From: Datisca glomerata
Taxonomy: Eukaryota > Streptophyta > Magnoliopsida > Cucurbitales > Datiscaceae
DNA length: 64,000 nt
Direction of reading: 5' to 3'
Assembly (NCBI GenBank): GCA_003255025.1
Contig: QANY01007217.1
Location: forward strand, 62,001-126,000
Both the position numbers and the translations under genes were made by a program. Position 1 is the first letter of the stretch. Each line of letters begins with the position of its first letter. Shown piece after piece: positions 21,845-44,091 of the stretch. Below the pieces are notes generated by a model that was not told where the DNA came from, did no database searches, and saw only the letters and a list, made by a program, of their open reading frames with translations.

Positions 21845-24060
21845 ATGACTATGCTGCCAATTATAATCTTGTATAGCGGTAGATGGGATGAATCAAAGCA
21901 ATATATTGATTATAAGATGAAACCGATAATGGTACATAATGATTCCTCATTTGTTTCTTTATGCCAATCAATATCGTCTGAATTGCTTATTGACGTTTCA
22001 AACTGTCAATTAATGGTGAAGTTGGACTTCAGTGGATGATGTAAAGATATTTTAGATATTAAAGTTGATTCAGATGTGGAGTGGTACTTTTCGTTGCTGA
22101 ATATGGATAGAAGTTTGTTGCATCCACTTATTCTTTCGGATAGAATTGTTGATAGTTCATCAAGTGTTGTTCTTGGTAAAGAGTTAGCTATGTTAAGGGA
22201 AGATGCTTCTTCTTCCGTTGTAAATGTTGAGTCAACTCAACCACTTTTTGTCAATGACGTTGATATAGATAATTTATCTTCAACATTTGATATTCGTGAG
22301 AATGTATTGTTTGCAAGCAATAATGAATTGAAGAAAGCTTTAAGACTCATTCTGGTTCAGTCTAACTTTCAATTTAAGACTGATAGGTCTAGTAAGATAT
22401 GTGTGTCTTGTGTTGGTTCAAACTGTCAATGGTTTGTGCGTTCTTCTCGTTATAAAGGTGGTCAGATGTGGATGGTACGTCAATATGTTAAGGAGCATAC
22501 ATGTTCTTTAGATATCGTCCAGAATGATCACAGACAAGTCATTGTTGCTTTGGTTAGTGAATGTGTGAAACATAGATATGTGAATGATGTTGGTGATCAT
22601 ACTACACCTAGGGATATTATTGATTTTATGCGTACAAAATATGGTGTTTCAATTAGCTACAATAAAGCTTTGCGGGCCAAATATGGAGCTCTAGAAATGG
22701 TTCGAGGTTCACCTGAAGAGTCATATTCTATATTGCTGTCATATTGCTTTACTTTAAAAGAGGCAAATTCTGGTATGTATTTTTTCTAAATACTTTATGA
22801 TAGCGTTTTTACACTAGTTACAGTATATAATTTTGAATCATGTTTCCAGTACATGTTCGTTTGTGTGCTTGGGGGCATCAATCCATGGGAGTGCACATTG
22901 TAGACCAGTCATTGTCGTTGATGGAACCTTCTTGAAAAACAAATATAATGGTATTCTGAGAATGATTTATCATGGGAGTGGTTTCTAATGAAGTTGAGTA
23001 GTGTTATTGGTTTTCGGGAGGATTTGGTGGTTGTTTCCGATAGGCATGGTAGCATCGCTAAAGTAGTACATAAAGCGTTCCCACATGCTGATCATGGTAT
23101 ATGTATGCAACATTCATTGATGAACTTGCACAAGAAATTTAAAAATTACAGCATTGATTCCACATTCTACTCATGTGCAAAAGCGTTCCGGGTTGAAGAT
23201 TTTGAGAAGTATATGTGTCGTTTAGAAGCCTGAGTCTCATCTCTTCATTTTTATCTAAAGAAAGCTGGCTATTGTAGATGGGCATGTGCTTATTTTAAGA
23301 GGCGTCGATTTAATGTTATGTGTAATAACATTGCTGAAAGCTTTAATAATTTCATAGTTGATGCTAGATTTTACCTGGTTTATATGTTTATTGAGTTTGT
23401 GAGACAAAAGTTACAAAGTTGGTTTTATGGAAGGAGGACATTTGCTTCATGTTTGATTACTTGTTTAAGTTCAACGGTAGAGGTTGAACTTCGTAATACA
23501 ATGACTGAAGCAAGAACAATGCAAGTAAGTGTTTTATTTTATTTTTTATATGTACTGTATATAATAAATTGACAATGTTTTCCTTTTTGTAGGTTCATTT
23601 GGTTGATTTAAATAAGTTTCAAGTTGTTGACGGGAGTATGCATTATATTGTTGATCTACAACAAAAGATATGTAGTTGTAAAAAATTTCAGATGATTGAT
23701 TTTCCTTGTTCTCATGTCTGTGCGGTCCTTGTGAAGAGGAATATGTCTCCATAACCTTTTGCGTCATATTACTATACGAAGGCTGCATTGGAAGTGACAT
23801 ATAGAGATGCAATATTCTATGTTGGTAATGAGTGTGAATAGATTATTTCTGAAGATGTGCAGATTTTGAAGGTTTTTCCCCCTTTAGTTAAACGGAAGAC
23901 AGGTAGACCTAATAAGAGTAGATACGTTTATGCAGGTGAATTTAAACCACGCTTGAGGTGTAGCCATTGTGGTAAATTGAGACACAACCGAAGAACATGA
24001 GAGCATGTAAAGGACATTAGTTGCAATAGTTCTTCATTTTCATACACATGCATTGAGTAT
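21845..24060 (+). pseudogene. mudrA-like MULE transposase
   Basis: The N-terminal MuDR domain lies in 22076-22772 (CVSCVGSNCQWFVRSSRY..EHTC pattern). An intron follows (GT at 22773, acceptor AG at 22848). The catalytic triad can be placed: Asp in IVVDGTF (22920-22922), Asp in VVSDRHGS (23039-23041) and Glu in NNIAESFNNF (23336-23338). A second intron is about 23525-23591. A SWIM zinc finger (CSCKKFQMIDFPCSHVCAV) is at about 23670-23730, then a basic KRKTGRPNKSR and a partial zinc knuckle CSHCGKLRHN near 23960. Defects: TGA at 22037, an internal deletion near 22955 after the first Asp, TGA at 23231, and TAG/TGA codons near 23840 and 23998. Cuts and joins element ends in active relatives. Confidence 0.9.
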
Positions 24061-24740: not shown

Positions 24741-27028
24741 CTATTTCACTTCTTGAATAAATCGAAGCTCGGTATTTACACCTTTGTTTGACTTGTCATC
24801 TCGTTTACTATACCGCATTACGTACGGTGACACCAACGTTTGGGGACGTTTGATCTGCCTTTTTGGAAGCAGTACTATTCTCGGTGATGTTGGTAGAACT
24901 ATCCCTTTTACATTCTTCTTATTTCCATATGCTTTTCTTTGCATGAAAAAAAAATTAATAGCTAATGTAAATTTTATCTATTCTGTATATATAAAAAATT
25001 TTTACTCTGACATTTGGTTTGAATGGCTCTTCATTCTTTATAGTTCTTGTCACTTCATGAGATTGCACATCATTCTTATTCTATATATAAATGAATTATG
25101 TTATTAGATATATACCATAACATTATCTTAGTATTTCCAATATATTAAATCATATCATTTTATTTTAGACTAGAACATGAACTTTCTATCAAAAGCAAAT
25201 CCAAAACCAGATGTGAAATATACATCATTTATTCACAAAACTAGTACTAATTTATAAATACACAACAAATAACGATAAGGATGACAATTATCCAGCAAAT
25301 AAACTCAAATATATAACATTTTATACTTTTTGAAATCATCACCATATTCACACAATAATGTATATACAACGTTATCCAATAAATCATCACTATCATGCAT
25401 CAAATAAAGTATATTTAATCATCATTATCCAACAAATAATTACTATCATGTATACAATAAAATATATTTAACATCTAGCAAATATAGTATATACAGTATA
25501 TAATTAATGAAGTTTTGTTTATGTTACCTGTTTTTTAGTTGCAACATCATTAGCAGTCATTTGTTCTTCTTCTTGCTTATATGTTTCATCATTTCCATCT
25601 TCTTCTGAAACTTCATCTTCTTTTCCATCTGATTCATCATTATCTTCATCCCCATCCTCATTATCTCCATCTTCATTCCCAGCATCCTTTTCATCATTGT
25701 CTCCATCTCCAACATCATCTTCATCATTTGCATCACTATCATCAGATTCATCTTCTCTTGATTCATTATCACCAACATCTTTATCTTCTTCCTCTTGGTT
25801 GTTCTCCTTGTAATATTAGTAATCAGTCAATTTAGTAATCAAATTATAAAATAAGCATATATTTTGAATTTAAGGTGTTGTATTACCTCATCATTTTGCT
25901 ATTTTTTAGCTTAGCCACATCTTTGCATAAAGATATGATCATACTATGGATTTCATCATTTTTTGAACAAATTGTGTCCAATCTTGAAGTTTGTTGCTTG
26001 TTTCACCGTCAAGCATTGACGGTCTATTTTCCATGTCAAACTCGTTACTAGGTTCTAGCACATTCTTACCTCTGTTTGACTTAAAAAACCGATGCACGTA
26101 CAGTCTTTGCATCTCATCTGGTGAAACCTCAATTGGAACAATTTGTAGCTACAAAATAGAGCAGTATATTTTAAATATACAGTTAATACACAGTATATAT
26201 ATATATATATATTATTGAAGTCTTATAACATATTTACTTGCATTGTTGCATGTAAAAATAACATTTTCCAACTCTTTCCAATCCGGTTGCATTGTTAACT
26301 CCCAGTTGCAGATTCTTGGTAGTGAACTTTTCAATTTATTTGCATATTCACCAGTTGGGATTGTTTCATACGCCCAAATTATCAATGCTAATGGAAAGCC
26401 GCCAAAGCCACTACCTTTTGAATCTGGTTTTCTATGAAATCTAACTATGTAGTCCAATGTTATTTCATATGATAAACTACCCCCACGGGTAATTCTCAAA
26501 CAACTCAGCACTATCTAGCATCCTAACATGATATAGATCAATGTTAGTTCCATCTTATTTTCCTAAAATAAGATTCTTCAAACAATAAAGTTTTGCCAAT
26601 TTTAACTTTTTCTCATCTTCCACCATTTCCATTGCCTTATAAGTTATCCTTAAATCCTTGTATGTGATTGATATATCATCTTTAAAGCTAGAAGACAACA
26701 AGGACATGCTGGGTAGTTTTTCTCTTCTAATCAAGGGGTATAGATCACAATTTAGTCTGGTTATTGTACCAAATTCTCTCAACCCAAATTTTGGCAATTT
26801 CCGGTTAAAGTTGAAGCATAGTTCATCCTTTCTATCGTGCTTACACATTCTACAAATTATGTGTAAGCATAATTGCGAAGAGAATTTGGAAACCTTAATT
26901 TCTAGCATATGTCCCAAACACAATTCCTTAAACTCTTCGAGTTGGGATCCTAGAGTTTCTTTAAGAATGGGGATGATATCAATCTTAGAGTACTGCAAAA
27001 CTTTTTTAGCTGACTTCCAATATTTCTT
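24741..27028 (-). pseudogene. MULE second gene, 3' exons: DUF1985 domain and acidic region
   Basis: Exons inferred from splice sites: 27028-26230 (DUF1985; KYWKSAKKVLQYSKIDIIPI, then FGLREFGTITRLNCDLYPL, ELFENYPWGSLSYEITLDYI), 26148-25887 (LQIVPIEVSPDEMQRLYVH), 25806-25528 (about 90 residues almost entirely Asp/Glu with Asn, Ser, Gly), and about 24935-24741 (KRQIKRPQTLVSPYVMRYSK, ending EVK-stop). Stops inside: TAA at about 26556 within DUF1985 and TGA in the 26148-25887 exon. In related plant MULEs this arrangement precedes a Ulp1/C48 protease, which is missing here. The 5' exons lie right of the viral array at 44092-44450. Confidence 0.82.
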
Positions 27029-27723
27029 CTAGAGAAATAATGGTTCTCCTGTCAATATTGTATATGATAAATAAACAGCACACATTCTATAACTGAGATT
27101 GTAAATAAGTAGATTATTGAAAGTTTATATGATATATACATTTAAAAGACTCGTGTCAAATTTTTCTCTCTCATAAAAAGGACATAAAAGAATAAATGTA
27201 TCACAGTAACTATAAGGAACAAATCATAGATAGAATTCAATTAAACTAAACTATTTCATAACACATCCATTGTTTTTCATAATATATTATGTTAACAGTA
27301 TATAACATATACACCAACATCAATTTATATTAAGTTTTTTTATATACAAAGATAACATGGATATAGTTCCAATAGTGAACAACATAAACAGTGTAAGGCA
27401 GTACACACGATGCAAGATAAACATTTCATAGAACATTTTTAAGTGATTAATCTACTACTAATAGTATATAACATATAAACTAATATCAATTTATATTAAT
27501 TAATCAACGTGTTTAGAGAAGCATAATATCTTAGATATTACATACACACATTCATTATTTGATAATCAATATCCATAATCCAGAACATTTAGATTAATTA
27601 TTCTAACAATAATTAATTTTAAGACATTATTATACTAAATAAAAAATATGATCCTAACAGTTTATAAAATATATATATAAATATATATAAATTGCATAAT
27701 ATATATATATATAAATTGTATGC
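27029..27723 (-). other. MULE gene intron, left of the viral insertion
   Basis: AT-rich intron sequence ending in TA-dinucleotide tracts at about 27668-27715. The viral array starts just after these tracts, and the intron resumes near 44025. Confidence 0.65.
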
Positions 27724-28015
27724 ATGAAGGACTAGTTCCCACCAAGTACTTCAAGAAGAGGAGAAAATCTTTGTTTTCTGCCAATGGTACTCGAATGCAT
27801 ATTAATTATGAAATCCCCAAAGTTTATATTTTTCAAGATAATGTATGATTCAAAACATCATTTATCTTAGTAAAGAATATGATGGATAAAATACTTTTGT
27901 TACTATTCATTTCTTTGTTGTATCCTTTCACAGTAGAGTATGATAGGATAATTACTTATCCCATGGATGAACTTGTTAAATTCAAATTTCTTTCTTTTTC
28001 TCACAATGAGAAAGA
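27724..28015 (+). pseudogene. Inverted caulimovirid protease fragment
   Basis: On the plus strand, opposite to the rest of the array, this encodes the stretch after the protease active site (EGLVPTKYFKKRRKSLFSAN) and onward to a part equivalent to 39.9-40.2 kb of copy A. It lacks the Asp-Ser-Gly motif and contains a stop at about 27848. It then joins viral leader DNA. Confidence 0.85.
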
Positions 28016-28737: not shown

Positions 28738-30278
28738 TCATGATTGCTGTTGTTGAAATTTTATTGAGACTGTTGCACATTGGATTCCTTGATATTTGCC
28801 ATCTTGAATTCTTGTGTTTCGGTTGTTGATTTTGGAGAAATCATAATTATTGTCTACAAAGGTCACTATAACTAGTGGTATTGATAATTGCTTGCCTTGA
28901 AGATCATTAAGACCGTTGCATTGTGCTAAGGTTTCACCATAATATATCTTCAAATTTACCTTGATTCTTTGATTATGATTTTGTTCAAACATTGGCATTT
29001 TTCCAAGGATGAATTCTTCGATTCATTCATTGACTTATATGAATTTATTCATCATTATTGGTATTGATATTGTCAAATGGATCCTTCAATTGCTAAAGAG
29101 TAACCTTTCTGGATAATGACTCTTTGGATGATTTAGAGTCAGATTTGTCATTATCTTCCAAAAGGATAAGCATTTTTTAAGTAATTTTTTCTCCAATTTG
29201 GATTTTGGCTTCGTGGCTTTTGATTTACCCTTCGAAGAGAGATCTGATTTGGTTATGGATCCAGATTTGAATGAATTTGGACTGGATGGTTTGATTTATA
29301 GATCTAGGTGAATGAGTTCATTTATGTTTAATGGAGCTTGGATAAAAGGATTTGCGAGTCTCATGATAGGATGGACTTTTGCAAATTCATAATTGATGAA
29401 CGTAATTATTTTTTGAGAATTCAACTTATACCACCATTTAACATGATACTCTCTGGTGAGGATTATATTTCAATCGAGTATTGCCATTTCAAAATCCAAG
29501 GTATTTTGTAGTTTGTTGAAAAATAAAGTATTTGGGGAAAGGAAACCTCAATTAGTGAAACATTGTTGTAAATCAATTGAAAAAAGTTCTAAAGTAAGAC
29601 CATGAATAGACCATCATTTTAAGAACCAATTTGAAAAATTAATTTTAGAATTGTTATCAAAAAGTTTAAAAATCAAAAGTGAGAAAAAGCACCATCCTGA
29701 TGCAAGAAAATCTTATGTCATGCATAAATATAGTTAAAATAGTTGTATTATTTTTTATTCAAAAGTACTTTTAAACTTGAAGGATGGATTTTCCATTCTT
29801 CCATAGTTATGATCTCGAGGATAGTGAAAGAATGATAAATTATTCTTTCTTCAGAATTTCTGATTGGACTAATTTTTATAGATTCTGTTTCTAAGATAAT
29901 GTCTCTATAGAAACTGAGATTTTTGTTATTTTGTCCAAGAACATAATGGAATTTAGGATGAAATGGGCTTTGGCAATTTGACTAGGATCCTTCAAATGAG
30001 TGAATGGAGGCTCAATATAAAAAACTTTTTTGTTGGCCATTTTCTAAAAATCAAATGATGATTTCTTGTATTTTGAAAGTGATTGGGCACCAAATGATAT
30101 TGAGAATTGGTCAAATTGGTTGACTATGGTTGATTGGTTATTGGATCTGATTGACTCAAATATTGTTGATTGAGCTTGGTTTTGAGTAGAAGACTCCTCT
30201 TTGATTTAGGCCTTAAAGGCCAATTGTTGAGTCGAAGACTCTTCTATTATTGAACCATTTATCATTTTCACATGTTTT
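28738..30278 (-). pseudogene. Copy B: downstream protein of unknown function
   Basis: Follows the AlkB-like domain and aligns with copy A 37135-38400: shared text includes ESSTQQLAFKA (about 30190-30225), SFYRDIILE, MEEWKIHPSSLK (about 29770-29810), FLHQD and a Ser/Lys-rich tail. Many stops. The last segment, 28738-28998, is open but has no recognised domain. It resembles the second ORF downstream of the polyprotein in florendovirus-like genomes; function unknown. Confidence 0.7.
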
Positions 30279-30752
30279 TCTAAAAGTGATGTTGATTCTT
30301 CTGGTTAAGGATTCTACAACATGTCTATGACCTATTTGAAATCCATCAGGCATGACGAAGAAAGTTCATTCTAACATCACAAATTCTTTCATTGTTTTGT
30401 CTGAAAATTTTATTTTAAAAATTGTTTGTCCTAATAAGTTTACAGTTAAAATTTTACTGATATTATAACAGATTTCATTATCCTTGTGAAAACCTATTTT
30501 TTCACCTTTTCCATACCATTGAATTAATGATGCAATGAAGTCATGCTTCAACTCAACATCTTCTGAAATTTTATCCAATTCATTAATCCAATCATTTCTT
30601 GGATATTCAAATTCATTATGACCATAATCAATGAATGGAGATTTTGAACAAAAGGCGATTGCCCTGCCATTGAGCTTCTTGATTTTGAAAGAATTTTGAT
30701 TAAATATTCTAGGCTCTACCTTTCCATATTCTAGAAGGTCAAATTCATCCAT
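30279..30752 (-). pseudogene. Copy B: AlkB-like 2-oxoglutarate/Fe(II) dioxygenase domain
   Basis: One reading frame of 158 codons broken by a single TGA at 30366-30368. From the Met at 30752: residues 79-91 WYGKGEKIGFHKD give the HxD iron ligands (His89, Asp91; 30480-30488); ILTVNLLGQTIF is the expected beta strand; after the TGA come MPDGFQIGHRHVV with the distal His, and RINITFR (30279-30299), the R-x5-R pair that binds 2-oxoglutarate and substrate in AlkB proteins. AlkB enzymes remove alkyl groups from nucleic acid, and such domains are known in several plant RNA viruses. The frame follows directly on the RNase H tail and precedes the downstream protein, so it is a viral gene segment rather than a host insertion. 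Confidence 0.88.
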
Positions 30753-30769
30753 TGCAAAATCCTGAAATG

Positions 30770-31709
30770 ATTCGTTACAAAATATTACAAGTCAGGGAAT
30801 CAGACATTTAATCATTAATATATTGGATAAATTAAATATTTGAAATTAGAATTGCTAAGAATGGGTTATTACCTGGAAAAACTTTGTTTGGAATTAATTT
30901 CAAAACATGTTTTGTATATTTATTAATAAAAAATTGTATGATTTGATCAATTGTTTTAATAAGAAAATAACAAATTTCAAATTCTAGAAATCTATTCTTA
31001 AATTTTGTAGAGATAATTAAATTATTTTGTTTTATTATCTTAACAAACAATTTAGAGTATTTTTAGTATTGTTTAACATATTGGCTAATACAAACAATCA
31101 AGAAATGCAACCAGTATTGTCCAATAAGAATATTAGTAATGCAATCAATCAAAAAATCAGTAAATTGATTAAAAAGTTTAATCATTATATTCTGAAATTT
31201 ACTTAGAGCATATCTAAGATCAAATGGCATTATTTTTTATTTATAATGATCAAATATAATCTTGTATTTCTCAGTCTTATTTATCTAGATTTGCTAATAT
31301 TCAGATTTTATACTAAACTTAGAGGATACATCAACATTTCTAAGTCTGTTGATTTAATCTTTCTGTTTGATATTGAATATTTTATCCATTCCAAAATATC
31401 ATTATGGGGCTTGTGATCAATTACTAAACGAGGAAGTTCTCGTTCAATGATTTTATCTTGATTTTGAAAAGCATGCTCTTTAATTTTATCTTGTGAAAAA
31501 TATAATTGTTTTCTCTTACAAGAAATTAAGTTTATGGACTTAAAAACAGAATTTTGTTTCAAAGTCTTCAATTTCTCATTGTGAGAAAAAGAAATAAAAT
31601 TGAATTTTACAGGTTCATCCAAAGGATAAGTAATTATCTCATCATACTTTGTGATAAAAAGATACAACAGAGAAATGAATGATAAACCTAAAATAATTTT
31701 GTCAGTCAT
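30770..31709 (-). pseudogene. Copy B: reverse transcriptase / RNase H, internally deleted
   Basis: Starts with MTDKIILGLSFISLLYLF (the protease-RT linker, as in copy A at 40106), then jumps to RT at about 31448 (ERELPRLVIDHKP), missing the first RT block. The region equivalent to the catalytic YIDD reads C-I-S-Q (about 31095), so the polymerase site is lost. Another deletion removes most of RNase H; only its tail remains (KHVLK, then a frame with ILSNSNF, about 30780-30905). Confidence 0.8.
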
Positions 31710-31729
31710 ATTTTTACTAAGACAAACGA

Positions 31730-32140
31730 TATTTTAAAACATACATCGTCTTGGTAAATATGAATTTTGAGTATTTCATAATTGATATGCATATGAGTAC
31801 CATTGGCAGAGGATAAAAATTATTTTATCTTCTTGAAGTACTTGGTTGGAACTAGTCATTCAAGCATATAATTCAATTCAGCTCCTGAATCAACAAGAAT
31901 CATTGTCGTGAAAACAAAATCTTGAATAATTATTTTAACCATTATGTGCTATTTATTTTTTATTTTGATGTGATTAAGTATTTGGATGAAGTTATCATCG
32001 TATTGACTGTTAACAATATGTTCTTTAACCTTATTATTAGAAATTAGTAATTTACTAGGTTCACTAAATTCTTGTTTATTAATTAAATTCTCTATTTTTA
32101 AAAGGTTTAATACTTTTTTCATTTCAATGTTTGAATTTTT
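31730..32140 (-). pseudogene. Copy B: aspartic protease
   Basis: Reads LVDSGAELNYM, so the Asp-Ser-Gly active site is intact at 31878-31891, followed by LVPTKYFKKIK and NGTHMHINYEI. A stop at about 31861 follows the active site. In the virus this protease matures the polyprotein. Confidence 0.82.
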
Positions 32141-32597
32141 TAATTCTCTTATTTCAAGTTTAATTTTTTTTAAAGTTCATGTAAGGTAACTTCTTTTTCC
32201 TTTCTCTTATCCTTATTGAATTTTTCAAGGGTTTGTGAAAGGCTTGCTATTGTTATTATTTGACTTAGTATTTTCTTTCTTTAGAATTACTTTCCTAAGT
32301 CTTTCCAGATATTCCTGTTTTAATTCTAGATTTTCAATTTTGCTAACTAAGTCTAACAAGAGGTTTTATTGTTCCTCATTTTTGTTTAAAACATTATTTT
32401 TTTAGCAACAACTATCCCCTACACCACATAGTGATATTAGGATAATCACTATCAGAACTTGAAGAGTTAAATTCAGAGGATTAAGGTGATTCAAATTCTC
32501 CTAAATCTTCACTATCACTCTCATAATAATCTGTTGTTTCTAAGATTCTAAACAATTCTTGTTTATTTTCTTCAAAAAAAAATTTCTTCAAAAAATT

Positions 32598-33420
32598 TTA
32601 ATTGGTTAATTTTATTTTTAACTTGGCAAATATTTGAAAAATTACTACCCTTGCCACATTTAAAACATTTAAGTTTACTTTTATCAGTAAATTTTCTATT
32701 AAATTTTCTACTGGAATTATGATTTTTAGAGAAATGTTTGTTAACATTTTTATTCTTTGAGAAGTATTTATCAAATTTTTATTTTTATTTTTTGGGTAAT
32801 TTCTCCTATAGGGCTTATGAGACCTTATAGGGCTTAAGTGTGATTTTTTTCTATTTTTCCTGGAAGAGGCAATGGAGGGTAAACCATATTGCTCACAGAA
32901 ATTGCCTAATTCGTATTTGGTAGTTTTACTTTCTTTTTTAAGTTGTTTATTGATTATCATATCAACACACATTCTTAAACCATCTTTTTGTATTATAGTA
33001 ATTATTGTTCTATACGTTAGACTATTATAGTGTATATTACATAGGTCATTACTAAGGACTGTTCTTATCTTATGTGCGAACAAATTGGGTAATCCATTAA
33101 TAAATTTTACTCTCCAAAAGGGTTGATTACTATCATTCATTTACATAACTCTAGATAAAAATATATTTTTACATCAATTGAAATCACTTAGGATTAGACA
33201 CCTAAGATTAGTTAATTGATCATGAATACGCAACGTAATATTATTTGGCGTTCCAATGAAATGTTCAATTATTGTGTAAAGAAGTGTATTTATGGCATCA
33301 AGTGTTGTTTCCTGATATTCTCCAATAATTGGGGTTCCTTCAGCATCAATCTTTACTGCTGAAAGAATGATAATTTTGGATTCTTCTATGAGATGTTTTT
33401 CTCATCAGGAATGAAGCATT
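32598..33420 (-). pseudogene. Copy B: capsid protein region with zinc knuckle
   Basis: Contains FWRVKFINGLPNLFAHKIR and LGNFCEQYGLPSIASSRK, the conserved capsid core, then a Lys/Arg/His-rich stretch (SHKPYRRNYPKNKNKN) and a knuckle at 32626-32667 reading C-F-K-C-G-K-G-S-N-F-S-N-I-C: the zinc-binding His has become Asn (codon at 32641-32643). The N-terminal part upstream of 33140 is in another frame, with stops near 33132 and 33155. Confidence 0.85.
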
Positions 33421-34737: not shown

Positions 34738-35516
34738 TTAAATTGGAGTATGTTGACTCTCATTAGTTAAAAGCCAATTTGAAGGCAAATTAATATCACA
34801 CCACCTAACTGTTTTAGGAACTCTAATATTGGCATTACTTTGGCTAGATTGGATCGATAGGGTTTGATTCTTTGGACTCTTATTAATGGCTTGAAAATTC
34901 ATATTTGGTTTGGTAACTTTGTAATGAATTCTGAAGATTAAAGGTACATGTTGGGTGCCTTCTAGGACTTGGTAACCACTAATTTTAATATTTAAAGTTA
35001 ATGATTTTAAAATATGAGGATCTGCTAAGCTAACAGACAGATCTAGAAAATAACCAAAATAGATTGGACCATTACAAAGTGAGGATTCAATCAATCCTAA
35101 AATACTATCATTAAAATTTGTAAATCTTGCATCTCGCAAGGCTAATAAGACAGAGGTATTTAGGCCTCTTCTTGTGAGTGACTTAACTCCAATCTGGACT
35201 AAACCAAAATGAAGGAATTTATATCCTTCTTAAATGTGTGTTTTATTGCATCTGAGGAAAGTAATTGGCAAGTTTCATGCTCTTTCCCAATAGCATATAT
35301 TTTTTCAATTATTTTTACATGATGCTGAGACTTAAAGGAAGCAACAGACCATGTTGATTTGTAAATATTTCTATTAAGGATTTTGGGTATATTACATACT
35401 ATATGATCTACTTGATCATATTCTAATTCAAAGTATTCCTCATTTATTACGTTTGGTATTGAAGTTATTGTAGACCTATTACTACTAGAAGAATTACTTC
35501 TAAATAATTTACTCAT
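34738..35516 (-). pseudogene. Copy B: movement protein
   Basis: The N-terminus starts MSKLFRSNSSSSNRSTITSI at 35516; after a frameshift near 35199 the core continues at 35139 with RDARFTNFNDSILGLIESSL and SVSLADPHILKSLTLNI, typical of caulimovirid movement proteins of the 30K superfamily. A C-terminal part with TVRWCDINLPSNW follows. These proteins move virus between cells through plasmodesmata. Frameshifted, so not functional. Confidence 0.85.
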
Positions 35517-35943
35517 GACTCAAATAACTAAATTATTCTTATGATTGAAAATTTCATATTGTATTTTGATTACTAATCTGTTGTGGTGACTTCTACAACC
35601 TCATATTTAGGGTCGCACTTCTCCAACATGTCCCTACAACCAAAATACCATCGGGATTTACGTCCTTAAGAGGTCTTACTGAGGTACCTAAAGCTAACCG
35701 AATAGAAGTTGATACGTCAACCTCTGATAAAATAGATTTATAGATTAGATAAACAAATAATACAGAGAAATAATCAATTCTAAGAATAACCAGTCACTTG
35801 GGCGGAGTGTGAGATTAGATATAAGTAATTATTCATGTAAGTAATGAAACAACAATAAAAGCAATAACCAACCATAATAGGCGGTGAACATTTTAATTAT
35901 GCAGAAATTGAAATAGAAACAGTAATTATCCTCACTGGGTTTG

Positions 35944-35955
35944 GCTCTGATACCA
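35944..35955 (-). promoter_or_regulatory. Primer binding site, start of copy B
   Basis: Minus strand reads TGGTATCAGAGC, complementary to the 3' end of initiator methionine tRNA, the primer used by caulimovirids for minus-strand DNA synthesis. It defines the origin of the copy B unit. Confidence 0.85.
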
Positions 35956-36484
35956 AATGATGCGGAATCAAGTATAAATTAAAGCGGTGAATCCTAAGAT
36001 CTTGAAGTAGAAACAATAATTCGTTCTAGACTTTTAATTTTAAATTTTTTTAATTCTTGCTCTATTCAAATCATAATATCTTGATCATTATTGATGGATG
36101 ATCTAGAAGAGGATTTTAAGTTTATATTTTTATTGGGGATTTTGGGTATATTCTGTTCCTCATGATCTACTTGATCATCTGTAAAATATTCAAAATGGTC
36201 TTCTTGATCATCTGGAAGGTGTTCAAAATATTTATGATCTACTTGATCATCTGCTAAATCAAAATGTTCTTCATCCATTACGTCGGATATTGTAGACCCA
36301 ATGCTACTAGAAGAACTACTTCTAGATAATCTACTCATGACTCAAATATCTAAATTATTCTTAGGATTGAGAATTTCATATTGTATATATATATACACAC
36401 ACATAATAGGCGGCAAACAATATAAATTATGCAGGTATTGAAGTAGAAACAGTTAATGAACAGTAATTATTCCCACCAGGTTTG
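35956..36484 (-). pseudogene. Deletion mini-unit of the virus between copies A and B
   Basis: Between two primer sites only 0.5 kb apart lies a leader, then the movement protein start (MSRLSRSSSSSSIGSTISD at 36338) with DDQVDH repeats, fused after NIPKIPNKNINLKS to SRSSINNDQD, which in copy B lies about 900 bp further downstream (near 34600), and then back to leader. Most of the genome has been removed. It looks like a recombinant or defective form integrated with the array. Confidence 0.75.
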
Positions 36485-36496
36485 GCTCTGATACCA
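36485..36496 (-). promoter_or_regulatory. Primer binding site, start of the mini-unit
   Basis: Minus strand TGGTATCAGAGC, identical to the site at 35944. It also marks where copy A ends, 7.47 kb after its own primer site. Confidence 0.85.
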
Positions 36497-36805
36497 AAAG
36501 GTGCGGAATTGAACAGTATTTAAGATGGGGTATTGAGAAGTAAGAAGATAAACAGTAAGTATTGTATTAAGAAACAGTAAAAATAGGTAATGTATTAAGG
36601 TGTAAGATTAAAAACTTACACAAATAGAGTTTATTGGCAACAATAAATTAGTACTCCCGCTCATTAATTTACGTTGAAGAAAAAAGAAGAAAAAATTTAC
36701 AAAAGAGGAGTAGAAGAAGAAAGTTTTGTTTCACAAAACAGGTTTTAGCTCTCAAATAGTAAGAGTTGTAAAACGAGTTCCGATTCACAAATGGGAGAGG
36801 CTACC

Positions 36806-36813
36806 TATTTATA
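36806..36813 (-). promoter_or_regulatory. TATA box of the viral promoter (end of copy A)
   Basis: Minus strand reads AGCTATAAATAGGTAGCC, matching the site at 28508-28515, about 310 bp before the next primer site. The conservation of this block between copies supports a promoter role. Confidence 0.75.
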
Positions 36814-36923
36814 GCTAAGAAAAGTGGAGTTCATCGGGAACTCATTACTTACCTGAACTATTCTATTCTACAAAAGTAAAAGAATTTTACATTTCTACTT
36901 TTGTCTACTTTTGACTAAGAATA

Positions 36924-38410
36924 TTAAAAAGTATAGTGATTACAAAGAGACAAATTACAAAGAATCTTTGGTAGGCGAAGTCCTTTGTAGTTGTCATGAT
37001 TGGTTGAGACTGTTGGTGGATAATTGTTATCCTGATCTTGTCCTTTGATTGTGTTGAAGAGCATGATGGTCATTGCATTGTGCTTTTTATCATGATCTCT
37101 TAAATATCTTATTGGCATTTTGACAACAAGGAAACTATTCATCTTCATCTTCACTGAGGTCCACATCCTCAAAAGGGTCTTGAGAATCTTGGAAGGGATC
37201 ATGGGCCCATCGGGGAAGAGACCGAACACGAGATTTTCCCTTTGATTTTTGAGCTGGAGATTGACTCTTTTTGTTCTTGATTGGGTGACTCGATTCTTCT
37301 GAGGAATCAGAGTTAGAACTAGAATTTTCAAGAAGAATGATCATTTTTTGTATTAACTCCTGCTTTTCTTTGGATTCTTGGACTTGTTTTTGCCTTTCGA
37401 AGAAGGTCTTGTGGTGGATTTTGAATTCTGGGAGGAATCTGATGATTGCTTAATTTGCAAAGTCTGATTATCTGGTTCCTTAATTTTTAAGGAGGCCATT
37501 GGAGGCTCGGGAGATTTTATCTGAGGGTGAGAGTTTGCTAATTCTTCATGTGTGGAGGCAGATATTTTTAGTGTACTGAATTTGTCCCACCATTTTACAT
37601 AGTATTGTCTGGTGAGGATTTCTCCTTCAATAGTGCATTGCCATTTAAGGATCCAAGAAATTTTGAACTTATTTATAAAATAAATTATTGGACGAAAAGA
37701 GGCCTCAACTGTTGAGGGTTTAAATAATTTTAAAAACAAACTGTAATTTTGTTGAAATTTTTGTCAAAATTTAAAAACCAGGAGTTGGTAAATTCACTAT
37801 TTTGGTGCAAGAAAATTGTTTGTCATACATCAATATAGTCAAAATAATTATATTATTTTTTATTTAAAATAGGTTTTAACCCTGAGGGATGGATTTTCCA
37901 TTCCTCTAAAGTTATTATTTTGAGGATATAGAAGGAATGATAAAGGATTTTCTCTTCTGCACTGTTTATAGATTTGATATTTATTGATTTCATTTCTAGG
38001 AGAATATCTCTGTAGAAACTAAGGGTTTTGTCCTTGTGTCTAGGGACAAAATGAGAATCAGGAAGGAAATGAGCCTTCACTATTTCTATTGGATTTTTAA
38101 AATTGGTGAATGGGTGTTCAATATAGAAGACATTTTTACTGGGGGTTTTTCTATAATAAGGAGAAGATTTTCTATAATTGGTGAATGGTTGGTTGATGAC
38201 CAATTGTGGGTCAAATGGTTTAGAAAAAGCAAAATGGTCAAATTGATTGACCAAAGTATTTTGGTAATTAGGTCTTGTGGACCCAAGAACCGTTAATTGG
38301 GTATTTCTTGGAGTAGAAAACTTCTCTTTGATTTGGGCCTTAAGGGCCAATTGATGTGTGGAGGATTCTCCTTTGGTCATTTTCGTGGAAGCTTGGGGCC
38401 TAGACCCCAT
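36924..38410 (-). pseudogene. Copy A: downstream protein of unknown function
   Basis: From about 38410 it reads ASTKMTKGESSTHQLALKAQ, continues open to 37853 with EEWKIHPSGLKPIL, then 37739-37353 (YYVKWWDKFSTLKISAS and a Ser/Lys-rich tail) and 37344-37135 (acidic end, DPFEDVDLSEDEDE). It matches the downstream protein of copy B. Here it follows RNase H almost directly, with no AlkB-like domain. Function unknown. Confidence 0.75.
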
Positions 38411-39720
38411 CCTTCTGTTGCCCCTATAGGAATTCATGTGGTAAAAAGTCAAGGACTGAATTATTAACTCCTTTAATAAATTCAATATTGAAATAAAAAA
38501 ATACTAAGTATAGATTGTCATCTAGCAAAGATCTGTTTGGAGGTTATATTTTTAATATCCTTTTCAAGAACATGCTTAGCAGATTTGCAATCAATTTTTA
38601 ACAAGAATTTTTTATTTAGTAAGTCATCTTGGAATTTTTGTATGCATAAAACAACAGATAAAATTTCTTTCTTAATAGTAATATAATTGACTTGTGATTG
38701 AGACCGCGTTCCAGATGTAAACCTGACAATTTGTTCAGGTGCTTCTGGGGAAATCTTTTGTAACAGGATACCTCCATATCCAATTTCAGAGGCATCAGTT
38801 TGGATAATTTTAAAAGAATTATTAGAGGGAATGCCAAGACAAGGAAGTGTTTTAACATGGGTTCAATTCTTTTGATTAATTTAGTATGGAAAATTGTCCA
38901 ATGAGGGGGATTCTTTTTAAATCTGTCAAAAAGAGGCTTACAATCAATTCTCATTTTATTGTAGAAATTAGATATGTAATTTAAAGATCCTAGAAATCTT
39001 TGCAATTGTGTCCTATCTAGAATTTCATTGGAGAATTTGTCAGCAAATTGTATTACTCTGTCAATTGGCTTGATTATAGAATATTGTATTTTGAATCCTA
39101 AGAACCTAATCTTATATTGAAATAATTTAATTTTGTTTGCAGAGATAACTAGACCATTTTTTTTATTATCTTAACTAATGATTCAAGGTGTTTCCAATGT
39201 TATTCTATTATTTTTGAAAAAATAAGTACATCATCAATGTAAACAATTGAGAAATCAGTAAATTGATTAAAGATTTCATTCATTATATTTTGAAATTCAC
39301 TTGGAGCATTTTTAAGGCCAAAAGGCATTACATTCCACTCATAATGGCCAAAAGGAGTTACAAATGTTGTTTTATATTTATCACTTTCATTTATCTAGAT
39401 TTGCCAAAATCCAGATTTCATATCAAATTTAAAGAATACCATTGCATCTCCGAGTCTATTTACTAAATCTCTTTTGTTTGGTATTGGATATCTTATCCAT
39501 TCTAAAACATTATTAAGAGGCTTATAATTGATTACTAAATGAGGAACTCCTCGTTTAATTTCACTGGCCTTCTGGACATAAAAGGCTGAGCAGGACCAGG
39601 AAGATTTGCTTCTTCTAATAATATTTTTATTGAGAAGTTTTGTAATTTCCTTTTTACAGAACTCAAGCATTTCTGAATTCATCTACATTGGCCTTGCCTT
39701 TGTTGGGATATTCTTTTCAT
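38411..39720 (-). pseudogene. Copy A: reverse transcriptase and RNase H
   Basis: RT begins with MNSEMLEFCKKEITKLLNKN (39682) and includes RGVPHLVINYKPLN and FFKFDMKSGFWQI; the catalytic motif IVYIDDVLIFS is intact at about 39231-39242. RNase H includes QTDASEIGYGGILLQ and QFQDDLLNKKFLL-type text down to about 38560, ending with EFIKGVNNSVLDFL near 38440-38470. Frameshifts and stops occur at several points. Synthesises viral DNA from RNA in the active virus. Confidence 0.88.
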
Positions 39721-39902
39721 CAAATCCCTTAATATAAGGAAGACTGACAGTATATTATTTTTTGTGCCAAAAAGCATGGAAATGTCAGAACATAATTCTT
39801 TACAGATTTTTATTCAAATATTTTAATTTTGTTTTGAAGAATAGAACTCTGAAGTTGTTCTTCAATTCTGTTAAATTTTAATTCATCTTGTAAAAAACAT
39901 AA

Positions 39903-40538
39903 TTATTTTTCTTTACAAGAAATGAGATTTATTGAGTTAGAGATAGCGTTTTCTTTTAGAGTTTTTAATTTTTCATTACTGGGAAAAGATAGGAATTTAG
40001 ATTTTATTGGTTTATTCATAACATAGGTAATTATTCCATCATACTCTGTTGAAAAAGGATATAGCAGAGAAATGAATGGTAGTCCTAGGATAATTTTTTC
40101 AGTCATATTTTTTACTAAGACAAATCATGTCTTAAAACACACATTGTCTTGACAAATAAAGACTGTGGGTATTTCATAATTGATATGCATACGAGTACCA
40201 TTAGTAGATGACAAAAATTCTTTTTTCTTTTTAAAGTACTTGGTAGGAACTAGTCCTTCTTGCATACAATTTAAATCTACTTCTGAATCTATAAGAGCCA
40301 TTGTTGTAACATCAAAATCTTGAATGATTATTCTAACCATTATGTGCCATTTTTTTATTTTTATGTGATTGGAGATTTGGATAAAATGTTCATCATTGTC
40401 TTGACAGTTTATGGGTTCTTCAATCTCATTATCAGAAATTAGTAATTTACTAGGTTCACCTATTTCTTGTTTATTAATTGGACTTTCTATTTTTAAAAGA
40501 TTTAATTCTTCTTTTATTTCAGTGTTTAAATTCTTCAA
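39903..40538 (-). pseudogene. Copy A: aspartic protease and linker to RT
   Basis: Reads ALIDSEVDLNCMQEGLVPTK: the active-site motif Asp-Ser-Gly has become Asp-Ser-Glu (40275-40289). It continues with NGTRMHINYEIPTVFICQDN, and after a stop at 40125 the linker MTEKIILGLPFISLLYPF follows. Copy B keeps the Gly at this site. Confidence 0.85.
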
Positions 40539-40628
40539 ATCTTTTATTTCAATCTTAATATCTTTATTTTTTTTTGAAGTTCCTGTAAGGTAACTTTCTT
40601 TTCTTTCCCTTTTATTTTATTGAATTTT

Positions 40629-40950
40629 TCAAGGGTCTGTGAAAGACTTAGTATTTTCTTTTTTTAGAATTATCTTCTTGAGTCTTTCAAGGTATTCTTG
40701 TTTTAATTCAGGATTTTCAATTTTACAAATTAGATCTAACAAGAGGGTTTCTTGTTCTTCATTTTTATTTAGGACATTGATTTTTTTACAACAACTATCC
40801 CTACACCCCATAGAGATGTTAGGAGAATCACTGTCAGAACTTGAGGATTCAGTTTCAAAGGATTCAGAGGTTTCATATTCTCCTAAATCATCACTATTAC
40901 TGTCATAATAATCTATTGTTTCTAAGATTCTAAATAATTCCTATTTATCT
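40629..40950 (-). pseudogene. Copy A: polyprotein spacer between capsid and protease
   Basis: The frame 40811-40629 reads GCRDSCCKKINVLNKNEEQE and then a charged helical stretch ending in KSFTDP. It aligns with copy B 32200-32420. A cysteine cluster is present but I know no defined function. Confidence 0.55.
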
Positions 40951-40963
40951 TCTTCAGAAATTT

Positions 40964-41417
40964 TTAATTGATTAATTTTATTCTTGACTTAACAAGTATT
41001 TGAAAGGTGACATTTCTGACCACATTTGAAACACGTAATATTAGTTTTATCAAAAATTTTATTAAATCTTTTTTTTTTGAATAATTTTTATTCCTACAGA
41101 AGTTTTTATTCTTAGAAAAGTTTTGATCAAAATTTTTATTTTTATGTTTGTGATAATTTTTCCTATAGGGCTTATGAGACCTTCTAGAGTTTAAATGAGA
41201 ATATATTCTTATACCAATTAAAATCACTTAATGTTGGACACCTAAGATTTGTTAATTGATCATGTATACGTGAAGTAATATTACTTGGCGTACCATCATG
41301 TATTGTTTCCTGCTTTTCTCTAATAATTGGGTTTCTCTCAGCATCAATCTTAACTGCTGAAATAATGACAATTTTGGATTCTTGTGTGAGATGTTTTTCC
41401 CACCAGGAATGAAGCAT
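40964..41417 (-). pseudogene. Copy A: capsid remnant with intact zinc knuckle
   Basis: The knuckle at 40992-41033 reads C-F-K-C-G-Q-K-C-H-L-S-N-T-C, with all four zinc ligands. Upstream the capsid core of copy B (FWRVKF to LGNFCEQYGL) is missing: the text goes from DQLTNLRCPTLSDFNWYKN (about 41230) directly to RSHKPYRKNYHKHKNKN. A deletion of roughly 0.35 kb therefore removed most of the capsid fold, and a smaller deletion removed a segment near 41300. Confidence 0.83.
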
Positions 41418-41446
41418 TCTTGTGAATCCTGTGACTACAAGATTTA

Positions 41447-42690
41447 TTACTTATTCATGAAGTAAATTGTGAGAGGTAATGTAGCTATTAGGTACCATTG
41501 CCATGTGTTGTAATCTATTAAGGACTTCCTGTTCAGAAAGACCATCAATATTCCATTCACATAACTTTTCTGTAGAAACATAAAATTGATTAACAAGAGA
41601 GGATTCAGTAATTTGAATATCAGGAGGCATGGGCTTCTTATGCCAACTAATTTATTAATTTTTAAAGTTTTAAATGTTTTTTCAATATTGTTAATATTAG
41701 AAAATTCATCTACTGTGGATGATTCGTAAGTTGATTCTGAGCTATGACTATCTGAGTCACTATTATCGTCTTGGTTAATCACTTTAACAGAGGAAGATGA
41801 CTCAAATTTATTTTTTAATTCCTGAATTATTTTATCAATTTTTTTATTAATTGGAATAATTTTTAAAGTGATTTTATTTGAAAAATTTATTAAAGGTTTT
41901 TCCTTCAGTGTTTCACTAGGCTTAGGTTCGTTGAGAACATCAACCTTAGTTTCAATTTTGTCTAACTACTTACCTATTGTGATTAGACTTTGGTTAATAT
42001 AGTTGAGTTGTTCAACTACTTTCTTGTTTGATTCTTCTTCCTTTGTAATTTTGAAAGGAGAAGCAGTGATTAAGAAATTTTTATGATTAATTATGATTTT
42101 CTCAGGAGGGGGATGACTAGTAAAAACTACACTAGAGTCTTCCTTAACCCATTTATACTTTGAAACTATTTTGATATTTCTTTCATAAATATCTTCAACA
42201 TAATCTAGGAAAAATATATCAATTTTAAATTCTTGCATAAATGTCTTCCATTCAGCAAGTATGATTTTTTTATCCATATCATATGAATCTTTAAATCTAT
42301 TACGTCTATCTAAATTATTTGTGTCATTATTGTGTTGGGCTAGACCTTCCCAATCTGGTTCATATTCTTGACTCGAGGCTCCTATATTCAGAACTAAGAG
42401 TTAATGGTTGACAGAATTAAGGCTTCCTTGAAAATCTGATCCAGTTGGTGCTTTAGTTTCATTAGATTGTTCAGACTTATTATCAAAACCTGGTTGGCTA
42501 ACTTGAGAACTTGTAGCTATGCCTTTAAGTTTTAAATTTGTAATTTCTTTAATTCTCGTTCTAAGTGTTGAATCCTAAAACTTTGATCATTACCAATGGA
42601 TGATCCAGAAAAAGAATTTCTAGGGCTACTAGACTGGCTATATTCCCTAATTTGTTGACTAGAAGATAATTGAAAGTTAATTTTTACAGT
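41447..42690 (-). pseudogene. Copy A: polyprotein segment between movement protein and capsid
   Basis: Open pieces 42277-41966 (ILAEWKTFMQEFKIDIFFLD, HPPPEKIIINHKNFLIT) and 41782-41447 (Ser-rich NQDDNSDSDSHSSESTYESS). They match the equivalent region of copy B in order and spacing. No functional domain is recognised. Confidence 0.72.
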
Positions 42691-43463
42691 AACATCCACG
42701 TACTGCTAGATGTAATCTACATCTTCAATTGGTCTTTGAATTTGGGTAGGTTGACTTTCATTAGTTAAAAGTCAATTTGTTGGTAAATTAATTTCAGTCC
42801 ACCTAATTATTTTAGGAACTCTAATATTTGCATTACTTTGACTAGATTGTATCAATAGGGTTTGATTTTTGGACTCATATTGATGTTTTGGTTACTTTGT
42901 AATGTATTCTAAAGATTAAAGCTAGGGGCTGTAATATTTAAAGTTAATGATTTTAAAATATGGGGATCTGCTAAACTAACAGACAGATAAGGAAAACAAT
43001 CAAAATGAATTGAACCATTACAAAGTGAAGATTCAATTAAACCTAAAATACTATCATTAAAATTTGTAAATCTTGCATCTCGTAAGGCTAGTAATACAAA
43101 GGTATTTAGGCCTCTTCTTGTAAGTGGTTTTACTCCAATCTAGACTAAACCAAAATCAAGAAAATTATATCCTTCTTGAATATGATGTTTTATTGCATCA
43201 GAGGAAAGTAATTGACATGTTTCATGCTCTTTTCTAAGAGCATATATTTTTTCAATTATTTTTACATGAAACTGAGGCTTGAAAGAAGCAACAGACCATG
43301 TTGATTTATAAATATTTTTATTGGAGATTTTAGGTATATTCCATACCTTGTGATCTACTTGATCATCTATTAATTCTATGTGTTCATCATTTATTATGTT
43401 TGGTATTGAGGTTATTGTTGACCTATTACTACTAGAAGAATTACTCCTAAATAATCTACTCAT
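42691..43463 (-). pseudogene. Copy A: movement protein
   Basis: The start MSRLFRSNSSSSNRSTITSI at 43463 runs open to 43140 (including STWSVASFKPQFHVKIIEKI). After a stop, the core follows at about 43100-42930 (DARFTNFNDSILGLIESSL, ADPHILKSLTLNI). Part of the segment after that core is shorter than in copy B. 30K-superfamily movement protein of caulimovirids, inactive here. Confidence 0.85.
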
Positions 43464-43561
43464 TGCTCAATTAACTAAATTATTCTTATTATTGAGAATT
43501 TCATATTGTATTGTTTGTTACTAACCTTGTGGTGACTTCTACAACCTCCTATTAGGCTTCA

Positions 43562-43765
43562 CTCTTCTCCCTTTCGCTCCTCCTTCCCCCCCTAAACTGA
43601 TTTGAAAAGAAAAAAGCCCCGCTTCCATTGGGGCCCCTCTCTGATAAGGAAATACATATTGGGTATCGTCAAATGATTCTATTCGTAGGAAAGCCTCGAA
43701 AATGGCCCTTATTCAATAATATATAATAATAAGAAAAAGGAATGGAACGAAGTTTTGGAAGAAAG
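43562..43765. other. Foreign filler segment in the copy A leader, organelle-like
   Basis: Copies A and B have matching leaders (GGTGACTTCTACAACCTC on one side, GAGAAATAAT and AGTCACTTG on the other), but between them copy A has about 200 bp unlike the 170 bp in copy B. It is richer in C and G (CCTTCCCCCCC, GCCCCGCTTCCATTGGGGC, a short hairpin). The composition and text remind me of plastid intergenic DNA, but I cannot name a locus, so the origin is inference. Confidence 0.5.
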
Positions 43766-43960
43766 AAAGAGAAATAATTAATTGTAAGAATAATCAGTCA
43801 CTTGAGCGGAGAGTAAGATTAGGTATAAGCAATTATTCAAAACAACAAATAAGTAAACATTGTTATCAATAACCAGCCATAATAGGCGGAAAACATTATA
43901 AATTATGCAGATATTTATATTGAAACATTTAATGAACAGTAATTATCCCCACCAGGTTTG

Positions 43961-43972
43961 GCTCTGATACCA
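43961..43972 (-). promoter_or_regulatory. Primer binding site, start of copy A
   Basis: Minus strand TGGTATCAGAGC, the same sequence as at 36485 and 35944. The array ends about 50 bp to the right, next to a TA tract. Confidence 0.85.
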
Positions 43973-44091
43973 AAAGACGCGAAATTGAACAGTATTTAAG
44001 AGGGGGTATTGAGAAGCTGAGATTATTGTTTATATATATATATATATATATATATTACAATATATAAACAAGAGTAACGGTACAATATTAC

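What the first reader, a model, noticed from the sequence alone, without database searches (positions are those of the whole stretch)
30279..30752. AlkB-like dioxygenase domain encoded in an endogenous pararetrovirus
Seen: one frame with HKD (iron ligands), ILTVNLLG, MPDGFQIGHRHVV (distal His) and RINITFR (R-x5-R), directly after the RNase H tail and before the virus's downstream protein. A single TGA breaks it. Known: AlkB domains occur in plant RNA viruses such as flexiviruses and some potyviruses, where they are thought to repair methylated viral RNA. I do not know of one as a standard part of the described caulimovirid genera. Inference: a reverse-transcribing plant virus lineage carried a nucleic-acid demethylase.
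Basis: partly seen in the sequence, partly recalled or inferred. Interest (0 to 1): 0.92.

Follow-up and report, generated by a model that had tools for sequence, protein, structure and literature searches.

The report
AlkB domain in RT-dead plant pararetrovirus
A fossil plant DNA virus family in this genome comes in two forms, a complete-looking one and one whose copying enzyme looks dead but which carries an extra RNA-repair-type enzyme (AlkB), so a copying-defective virus partner seems to have spread while keeping a gene that may undo RNA methylation.

Summary
The AlkB domain is real, on the minus strand (30279-30752), broken by one TGA. It is one of many: the same host assembly (678 Mb plant) gave 3003 first-look candidates, and 150 of 150 scored match. 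In all 50 copies that I read it lies just before the caulimovirid downstream protein (ORF2), in 45 of 50 in ORF2's frame, 27 open across the join. An unbroken copy passes Pfam's AlkB cut-off (E 2.5e-10). None of the 50 AlkB copies ('type B') has an RNase H core, and 0 of 22 aligned RT stretches (21 loci) read YIDD. None of 36 copies picked by their RNase H ('type A') has AlkB. A and B form separate lineages; AlkB and protease of B look constrained while its RT palm looks relaxed. The window holds one A (36.4-44.0 kb) and one B (28.0-36.5 kb) side by side. The layout resembles 'component B' of putative bipartite florendoviruses, with AlkB as a new part. RNA demethylation for the virus is inferred; the source of the AlkB is untested. 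My searches of the held papers listed none on AlkB in a caulimovirid.

The parts
30279..30752 (-). AlkB / 2OG-Fe(II) dioxygenase domain of copy 2 (type B), broken by TGA
   Evidence: PF13532 E 2.9e-5 on the stop-free piece 30366-30791, below the curated score; HxD, distal H, RxxxxxR align with phage AlkBs
30366..30368 (-). in-frame TGA that breaks this copy's AlkB frame
30213..30215 (-). TAA ending this copy's AlkB frame; here AlkB and ORF2 are out of frame, unlike 45 of 50 copies
29378..30265 (-). ORF2 (downstream protein) region of copy 2, decayed; an ATG at 30263-30265 overlaps the AlkB end
   Evidence: blastn to copy 1: 29649-30245 vs 37756-38372, 70%, and 29378-29551 vs 37534-37708, 72%; frames; ATG
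30835..31448 (-). RT remnant of copy 2: YIDD position reads CITN; RNase H core absent between here and AlkB
   Evidence: L009
31311..31824 (-). aspartic protease / RT N-terminal remnant pieces of copy 2
   Evidence: open pieces; DNA match to copy 1 (31479-32852 vs 39877-41209, 77%)
32575..33140 (-). coat protein region of copy 2 with CCHC zinc knuckle (knuckle read by eye)
   Evidence: PF22909 E 0.0036, 18.1 bits, below the cut-off of 27; frames
34741..35229 (-). 30K movement protein of copy 2
   Evidence: PF01107 E 8.4e-17; 28 database relatives
35938..35955 (-). TGGTATCAGAGCCAAACC, caulimovirid-type tRNA-Met primer binding site (identity of the motif recalled)
36479..36496 (-). same primer-binding-type motif, at the copy 1/copy 2 junction
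36459..44016 (-). copy 1 (type A): neighbouring caulimovirid copy without AlkB
   Evidence: L059
39203..39682 (-). RT of copy 1 in two stop-free pieces, with YIDD
   Evidence: PF00078 E 4.6e-14 (piece 39203-39394) and 0.016 (39398-39682); YIDD
38521..38862 (-). RNase H of copy 1
   Evidence: PF17917 E 7.2e-18, PF17919 E 9.9e-18
38427..38501 (-). RNase H tail / Pol end of copy 1, overlapping the start of ORF2 in another frame
37856..38503 (-). ORF2 of copy 1, N-terminal open piece; no AlkB
38623..39041 (-). stretch of copy 1 bounded by two AAATTC words 401 nt apart that corresponds roughly to what type B lacks
   Evidence: a suggested deletion, ends not mapped base by base
43955..43972 (-). primer-binding-type motif of copy 1
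42912..43466 (-). movement protein region of copy 1 (two open pieces)
   Evidence: by likeness to copy 2; no Pfam run

Best explanation
This is a fossil of a caulimovirid that existed as two genome forms. Type A appears to encode movement protein, coat protein, protease, RT, RNase H and ORF2. Type B lost the RNase H core and the RT's YIDD motif, but gained an AlkB dioxygenase fused to the front of ORF2, with little change in length, and in this window keeps promoter-like and primer-binding signals. SHOWN in the copies read: the domain, its linkage, the mutual exclusion of AlkB and RNase H core, the separate A and B lineages, and a contrast in dN/dS between AlkB/protease and the RT palm of B. 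INFERRED: B was copied in trans by A's RT; B supplied an AlkB-ORF2 protein that oxidatively demethylates RNA (m6A, or m1A/m3C that would stall reverse transcription) on the pregenomic RNA of the pair, protecting it from host RNA methylation. The near net-zero exchange suggests a packaging limit that put the new gene on a second, polymerase-less genome.
For: AlkB identity: Pfam; profile-profile match to phage AlkBs 96.7% over HxD...H...RxxxxxR. Linkage: 50 of 50 AlkB loci have ORF2, 43 of 50 protease, 0 of 50 RNase H core; AlkB in ORF2 frame 45 of 50, open 27. RT: YIDD in 0 of 22 aligned B stretches from 21 of 50 loci vs 28 of 30 A. A, picked by RNase H: ORF2 36 of 36, AlkB 0 of 36. Trees split A from B on ORF2 (25 A, 44 B) and on protease (27 A, 38 B), and on ORF2 with all 86 rows, one change, SH-aLRT 86. 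dN/dS at dS > 0.4: B AlkB 0.26, B protease 0.20-0.22, B RT palm 0.54, A RT palm 0.11, A RNase H 0.08-0.11. Size exchange: RT palm to ORF2 medians 901 nt in A, 933 in B, although about 432 nt are lost and about 478 gained. A and B adjacent: 16 A-B pairs within 10 kb, 0.66 expected by chance, and in this window.
Against: No enzyme activity, expression or virion data. Catalytic H, D, distal H, R are each kept in only 20-21 of 24 open copies, as expected of decaying copies but no proof of activity. A-A (7 vs 0.33) and B-B (4 vs 0.33) neighbours are enriched too, A-A about as much as A-B, so adjacency alone does not show partnership. A looks complete, so B was not needed by A for any standard function: parasite and partner are not told apart. 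29 of 50 B loci gave no aligned YIDD position, 4 of the 22 aligned stretches are gapped or look misaligned, and one (L031, PISD), like L049 read by eye, keeps the second Asp. The RT N-terminal part is not well constrained in A either (dN/dS 0.49), and B's RT values also fall with depth (palm 1.22 to 0.54). B size medians hide a wide spread (palm to ORF2 531-1681 nt). The copies read are among the most similar to the window's, and some were chosen for long open frames; other AlkB copies may differ.
Confidence: 0.7

Rival explanations
1. Type B is a helper-dependent parasite (satellite or defective-interfering genome) of type A, and AlkB serves B alone, for instance protecting its own RNA.
For: A appears autonomous (protease, RT, RNase H, ORF2); no YIDD was found in the B stretches aligned.
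Against: B keeps protease at low dN/dS (0.20-0.22) and in this window a movement protein, which a pure parasite could drop; Geering et al. (PMC4241990, passages) read a similar layout as a bipartite genome, while not excluding a helper virus.
Confidence: 0.4
2. Type B is a chromosomal repeat: one dead viral copy multiplied by segmental duplication or as a passenger of transposons.
For: Dead-looking RT; 3003 first-look candidates; the window also holds transposon remains.
Against: dN/dS of AlkB falls with depth to 0.18-0.26 (medians 0.45 to 0.18; pooled 0.49 to 0.26), protease to 0.20-0.22, ORF2 from 1.17 to 0.43; the RT parts of B fall too but stay at 0.53-0.54. AlkB and ORF2 frames stay joined in 45 of 50 copies. 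Flanking host DNA was not compared.
Confidence: 0.08
3. A host ALKBH gene piece lies here by chance and is not viral.
For: A host source is possible; the search of the host's own ALKBH genes did not complete.
Against: 50 of 50 copies read are linked to viral ORF2, none of 36 type A copies has it, and 24 of 50 are open in one frame without an intron.
Confidence: 0.03
4. The AlkB fold has lost catalysis in the virus and acts as an RNA- or protein-binding part of ORF2.
For: No activity shown; ORF2 function is unknown.
Against: Metal and 2OG ligands kept in 20-21 of 24 open copies and dN/dS 0.26.
Confidence: 0.15

Closest known systems
Component B of putative bipartite florendoviruses (VvinBV, VvinDV, OsatBV, SbicV; Geering et al. 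2014, PMC4241990; passages read; also PMC9719215 section 22)
   Same: There: MP, CP and protease kept; RT and N-terminal part of RNase H missing; C-terminal part homologous to ORF2 of component A; compound A+B insertions; TA repeats near insertions. Here: no RNase H core, ORF2 fused behind, protease kept, A and B neighbours, TA runs near the ends of the window's array.
   Different: Here an AlkB domain sits before ORF2, the RT is decayed rather than absent, and A seems complete. The main text of neither paper holds a word beginning with AlkB or oxygenase; supplements were not searched.
AlkB domains of flexiviruses and other plant (+)RNA viruses (Bratlie and Drablos 2005, PMC544882; passages)
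   Same: AlkB domain in a viral polyprotein with HxD, H and RxxxxxR; likeness of the GFQ..HRH and ILTVNL stretches to flexivirus AlkBs is recalled, not tested.
   Different: Virus here is reverse-transcribing with a DNA genome; domain lies before ORF2, not in a replicase.
AlkB-encoding Ty3/Gypsy elements of Phalaenopsis (PMC9289625; abstract and passages)
   Same: A reverse-transcribing element that gained an AlkB domain; there demethylase activity was shown in vitro (abstract).
   Different: 25-kb LTR retrotransposon with the domain in an extra ORF, close to plant m6A demethylases; here a caulimovirid, in an RT-dead partner genome, before ORF2. That survey also classed 423 of its consensuses as endogenous Caulimoviridae.
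AlkBs of phages in IMG/VR (L001, L003-L008)
   Same: MPxGFQ..H.H and HxD, RxSLTxR motifs align.
   Different: 18-24% identity; stand-alone genes of large phage contigs.
Host ALKBH proteins
   Same: Same superfamily (recalled).
   Different: Not compared: search unanswered.

Membership tests
AlkB (2OG-Fe(II) dioxygenase) | Profile match above curated cut-off | tested here: met
   met by the relative L037, 41.4 bits vs 31.2; 12 of 14 open copies match at E <= 0.01. The window piece alone scores 24.8, below the cut-off
AlkB (2OG-Fe(II) dioxygenase) | Fe ligands HxD and H, and first R of RxxxxxR (as listed in PMC544882) | tested here: met
   H 20, D 20, distal H 20-21, R 21 of 24 open copies; window residues
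AlkB (2OG-Fe(II) dioxygenase) | Jelly-roll fold | tested here: inconclusive
   AlphaFold2 on the N-terminal piece: pLDDT 40.7, unusable
AlkB (2OG-Fe(II) dioxygenase) | Oxidative demethylase activity | not testable with these tools
   bench test
Caulimoviridae | 30K movement protein, CP-protease-RT-RNase H order, tRNA-Met primer site (features recalled) | tested here: met
   for the two window copies together: PF01107, PF00078 and PF17917, primer-site motif; the coat protein match is weak
Florendovirus | RT phylogeny within the florendovirus clade | not tested
   no reference sequences held
Bipartite florendovirus component B | RT and N-terminal RNase H missing, MP/CP/AP kept, ORF2-homologous C-terminus | tested here: inconclusive
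   RNase H core 0 of 50, ORF2 50 of 50, protease 43 of 50; RT is decayed rather than missing; MP and CP seen only in the window copy
Bipartite florendovirus component B | Complementary to an incomplete component A | tested here: not met
   type A keeps RT, RNase H, ORF2 in 30 of 30 and protease in 26-27 of 30 and, in the window, an MP region

The most novel reading that the evidence does not exclude
Probability: 0.35. Interest if true: 0.95.

Novelty: new variant of a known kind. Interest (0 to 1): 0.86.

Why it matters
For viruses and retroelements of plants, the held papers that I saw report AlkB in RNA viruses and in one group of LTR retrotransposons; here it is in a reverse-transcribing virus, and its gain goes with loss of RNase H and of a working RT. 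So 'why would a virus divide its genome' and 'does RNA methylation restrain pararetroviruses' become questions that natural sequences and a simple enzyme assay can address. It also suggests that atypical component B sequences elsewhere deserve a profile search for AlkB.

Tried and rejected
Looked for relatives outside this genome: the window's AlkB piece against 5.8 billion proteins (5 candidates, none at E <= 1e-3); an open L037 frame with only its AlkB part scored (275 candidates, none at E <= 0.1; only proteins of about 0.55-1.75 times its length are candidates); viral contigs by peptide patterns (0 confirmed) and by motif (one search gave 8 stretches, 7 of them AlkB-like phage genes and one, L002, not; one search gave 1, a chance match by eye). 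Viral contigs with this MP or RT palm: none confirmed. NCBIfam and PHROGs: nothing useful. AlphaFold2 on the N-terminal piece was unusable; no fold search was made. PDB sequence searches gave no AlkB (two weak CheA matches; none). A splice-like GT...AG before AlkB was considered and dropped, because open copies read through that stretch. 'AlkB fused to Pol' was considered and rejected after frame counts. Host ALKBH genes: the search did not complete. Trees: 5 of 30 A and 6 of 50 B rows (ORF2), 3 of 30 A and 12 of 50 B rows (protease) did not pass the filters; all 86 rows went into, where the program flags several long branches and 48 of 82 inner branches as weak. Type A loci L065 and L069 overlap (same contig, 649 bp apart), so 30 loci are 29 places.

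Full report
What is there. On the minus strand the window holds two caulimovirid copies head to tail, about 36.46-44.0 kb (copy 1) and about 28.0-36.5 kb (copy 2), 77-80% identical over the stretches from movement protein to protease. Copy 2 carries the reported AlkB motifs at 30279-30752, with a TGA at 30366-30368. The stop-free N-terminal piece hits PF13532 at E 2.9e-5, below the curated score. Copy 1 has RT with YIDD, RNase H (PF17917 E 7.2e-18) and then the downstream protein ORF2, with no AlkB between. A primer-binding-type motif TGGTATCAGAGCCAAACC stands before copy 1 (43955), at the junction (36479) and before copy 2's ORF1 (35938), and both intergenic regions hold a TATA-type word CTATAAATAGG (read by eye). 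TA runs of 12-24 bases lie at 27700, 36384 and 44031, near both ends and the junction.

The same domain genome-wide. The host assembly (678 Mb, 1358 contigs, unnamed) gave 3003 first-look candidates for the AlkB piece, of which 150 were scored and 150 matched (64-100% identity including the window itself). I read 50 of these 150: the 30 best and 20 that I picked lower in the list, about eight of them for their long open frames, so counts of open copies are biased upwards. All 50 have AlkB's two halves and ORF2; 43 protease, 40 RT N-terminal part, 30 RT palm, 22 the end of RNase H, 6 its tail, and 0 of 50 the RNase H core. AlkB is in one frame without stop in 24 of 50. It is in frame with ORF2 in 45 of 50 and open across the join in 27; in L037 a 902-aa open frame joins a decayed RT, AlkB and ORF2. 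This window's copy is one of the out-of-frame ones. The unbroken L037 domain scores 41.4 bits against PF13532 (cut-off 31.2), and 12 of 14 open copies match at E <= 0.01. Against six phage AlkBs a profile comparison gives 96.7% probability with HxD, distal H and RxxxxxR aligned. Among 24 open copies each ligand is kept in 20-21.

Two forms. The RNase H of copy 1 gave 4393 first-look candidates, 150 of 150 scored matching. I read 36 (the 30 best, two of which overlap, and 6 of lower identity). Picked by RNase H, they all have its core; ORF2 is there in 36 of 36, AlkB in 0 of 36, and YIDD is intact in 28 of 30. In the AlkB form the YIDD position could be aligned in 22 stretches from 21 of 50 loci: 0 read YIDD, 11 have N at both Asp positions, one (L031) keeps the second Asp, four are gapped or look misaligned, and 16 of 22 share a four-residue gap in the palm. 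From the RT palm to the RNase H end A has a median of 654 nt (n 30) and B 221.5 (n 32, range 124-1429); from the RNase H tail to ORF2 A has 133 (n 30) and B 611 (n 30, range 195-1925, weak short matches); from palm to ORF2 901 (n 30) and 933 (n 43, range 531-1681). So about 430 nt were lost and about 480 gained with little change in length. Two AAATTC words 401 nt apart in copy 1 bound a stretch that fits the loss, which suggests but does not prove a microhomology deletion.

Frames. In A the RNase H tail and ORF2 are in different frames (+1 in 29 of 30), and ORF2's frame reads back over the tail. In B, AlkB lies in that ORF2 frame: +1 to the tail in the 6 loci compared, in frame with ORF2 in 45 of 50 (by eye). 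So AlkB is a domain put in near the start of ORF2.

Lineages and selection. On ORF2 and on protease, modules outside the exchanged part, A and B fall into separate groups (ORF2: 25 of 30 A and 44 of 50 B kept, support 1.0 and 0.957; protease: 27 of 30 A and 38 of 50 B, support 0.183 for A and 1.0 for B, midpoint rooted). With all 86 rows including six divergent A copies, B is still one side of a branch (SH-aLRT 86; 1 change against 27.7 in shuffles). L049, L052 and L053 lie nearest to A; these too lack the RNase H core; L053 reads HINN, L052 is gapped there, and L049, read by eye, keeps the second Asp only. Pooled dN/dS for pairs with dS > 0.4: A RT palm 0.11 (16 pairs), RT connection 0.13 (6), RNase H core 0.11 (192), end 0.08 (170), ORF2 0.34 (91), but A RT N-terminal part 0.49 (42) and A PR2 0.52 (4), which are not low. 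B protease 0.22 and 0.20, AlkB 0.26 (763), RT N-terminal part 0.53, RT palm 0.54. B values are higher for young pairs (AlkB 0.49, protease 0.63-0.81, RT 0.92-1.22), as expected where decay after integration dominates. Another cut of B gives AlkB 0.42 to 0.26, RT remnant 0.50 to 0.54, ORF2 1.17 to 0.43. Pairs are not independent, stop codons were skipped, and copies were chosen by similarity, so these are contrasts and not tests.

Adjacency. Of 150 A and 150 B places, 16 A-B pairs lie within 10 kb (0.66 expected if uniform), against 7 A-A (0.33) and 4 B-B (0.33). A neighbours B about as readily as A neighbours A. This fits mixed concatemers but is also what general clustering would give.

Interpretation. 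The layout resembles what Geering et al. (PMC4241990, passages) called component B of bipartite florendoviruses: MP, CP and protease kept, RT and the front of RNase H gone, ORF2 fused to the end, compound insertions with A. New is the AlkB domain before ORF2. One trait is not met: here A seems complete rather than complementary. Whether this virus is a florendovirus by RT phylogeny was not tested, and MP and CP of B were seen only in this window. The best reading is an RT-dead partner copied in trans that kept AlkB because RNA demethylation helped the pair or itself; partner and parasite are not told apart. Source: the domain's GFQ..HRH and ILTVNL stretches remind me of flexivirus AlkBs (recalled, not tested); the host's own ALKBH genes could not be searched.

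Novelty. Search listings: AlkB with Caulimoviridae (8 papers), with endogenous pararetrovirus (4), caulimovirid with 2OG-Fe (4), six terms with Caulimoviridae and dioxygenase (1), florendovirus with AlkB (0), pararetrovirus with AlkB anywhere in a word (12), AlkB with retrotransposon, domain and virus since 2014 (153, 15 listed). Of these I opened PMC9289625, PMC2714080 and PMC12786077 (passages); none of the passages reports AlkB in a caulimovirid; the other listed papers were not opened. The main texts of PMC13308828 (2026 survey), PMC10377300, PMC9719215 and PMC4241990 hold no word beginning with AlkB or oxygenase, and PMC5766536 none beginning with oxygenase. Supplements, subscription papers and preprints were not searched, so an unseen report is possible. 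The nearest precedent is the orchid Gypsy element with a working AlkB (PMC9289625, abstract).

Noticed in passing
22040-23572 (+): MULE (Mutator-like) transposase remains: PF03108 (just under its cut-off), PF10551, PF00872 in pieces 22040-22789 and 22949-23233.
   Followed up: no
26555-27028 (-): DUF1985 (PF09331, E 4.1e-12), a domain often seen in plant MULE-type elements (association recalled).
   Followed up: no
27714-28013 vs 31572-31873: About 300 bp of the viral protease/RT-front region repeated in inverted orientation at the end of copy 2 (81.5% identity).
   Followed up: no
35402-36386: A partial extra unit between the two copies: a second ORF1 start and primer-site motif, so the junction is not a simple head-to-tail join.
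   Followed up: partly
41187-41450 (-): DUF7746 (PF24925, E 3.3e-5, just under its cut-off) in the coat protein region of copy 1.
   Followed up: no
L053 1693-2005 (oriented with AlkB): RNase H tail matched twice before AlkB, a local duplication in a type B copy near the A side of the tree.
   Followed up: no
45743-46484 (-): Open pieces resembling a LINE-type gag with a zinc knuckle (by eye).
   Followed up: no
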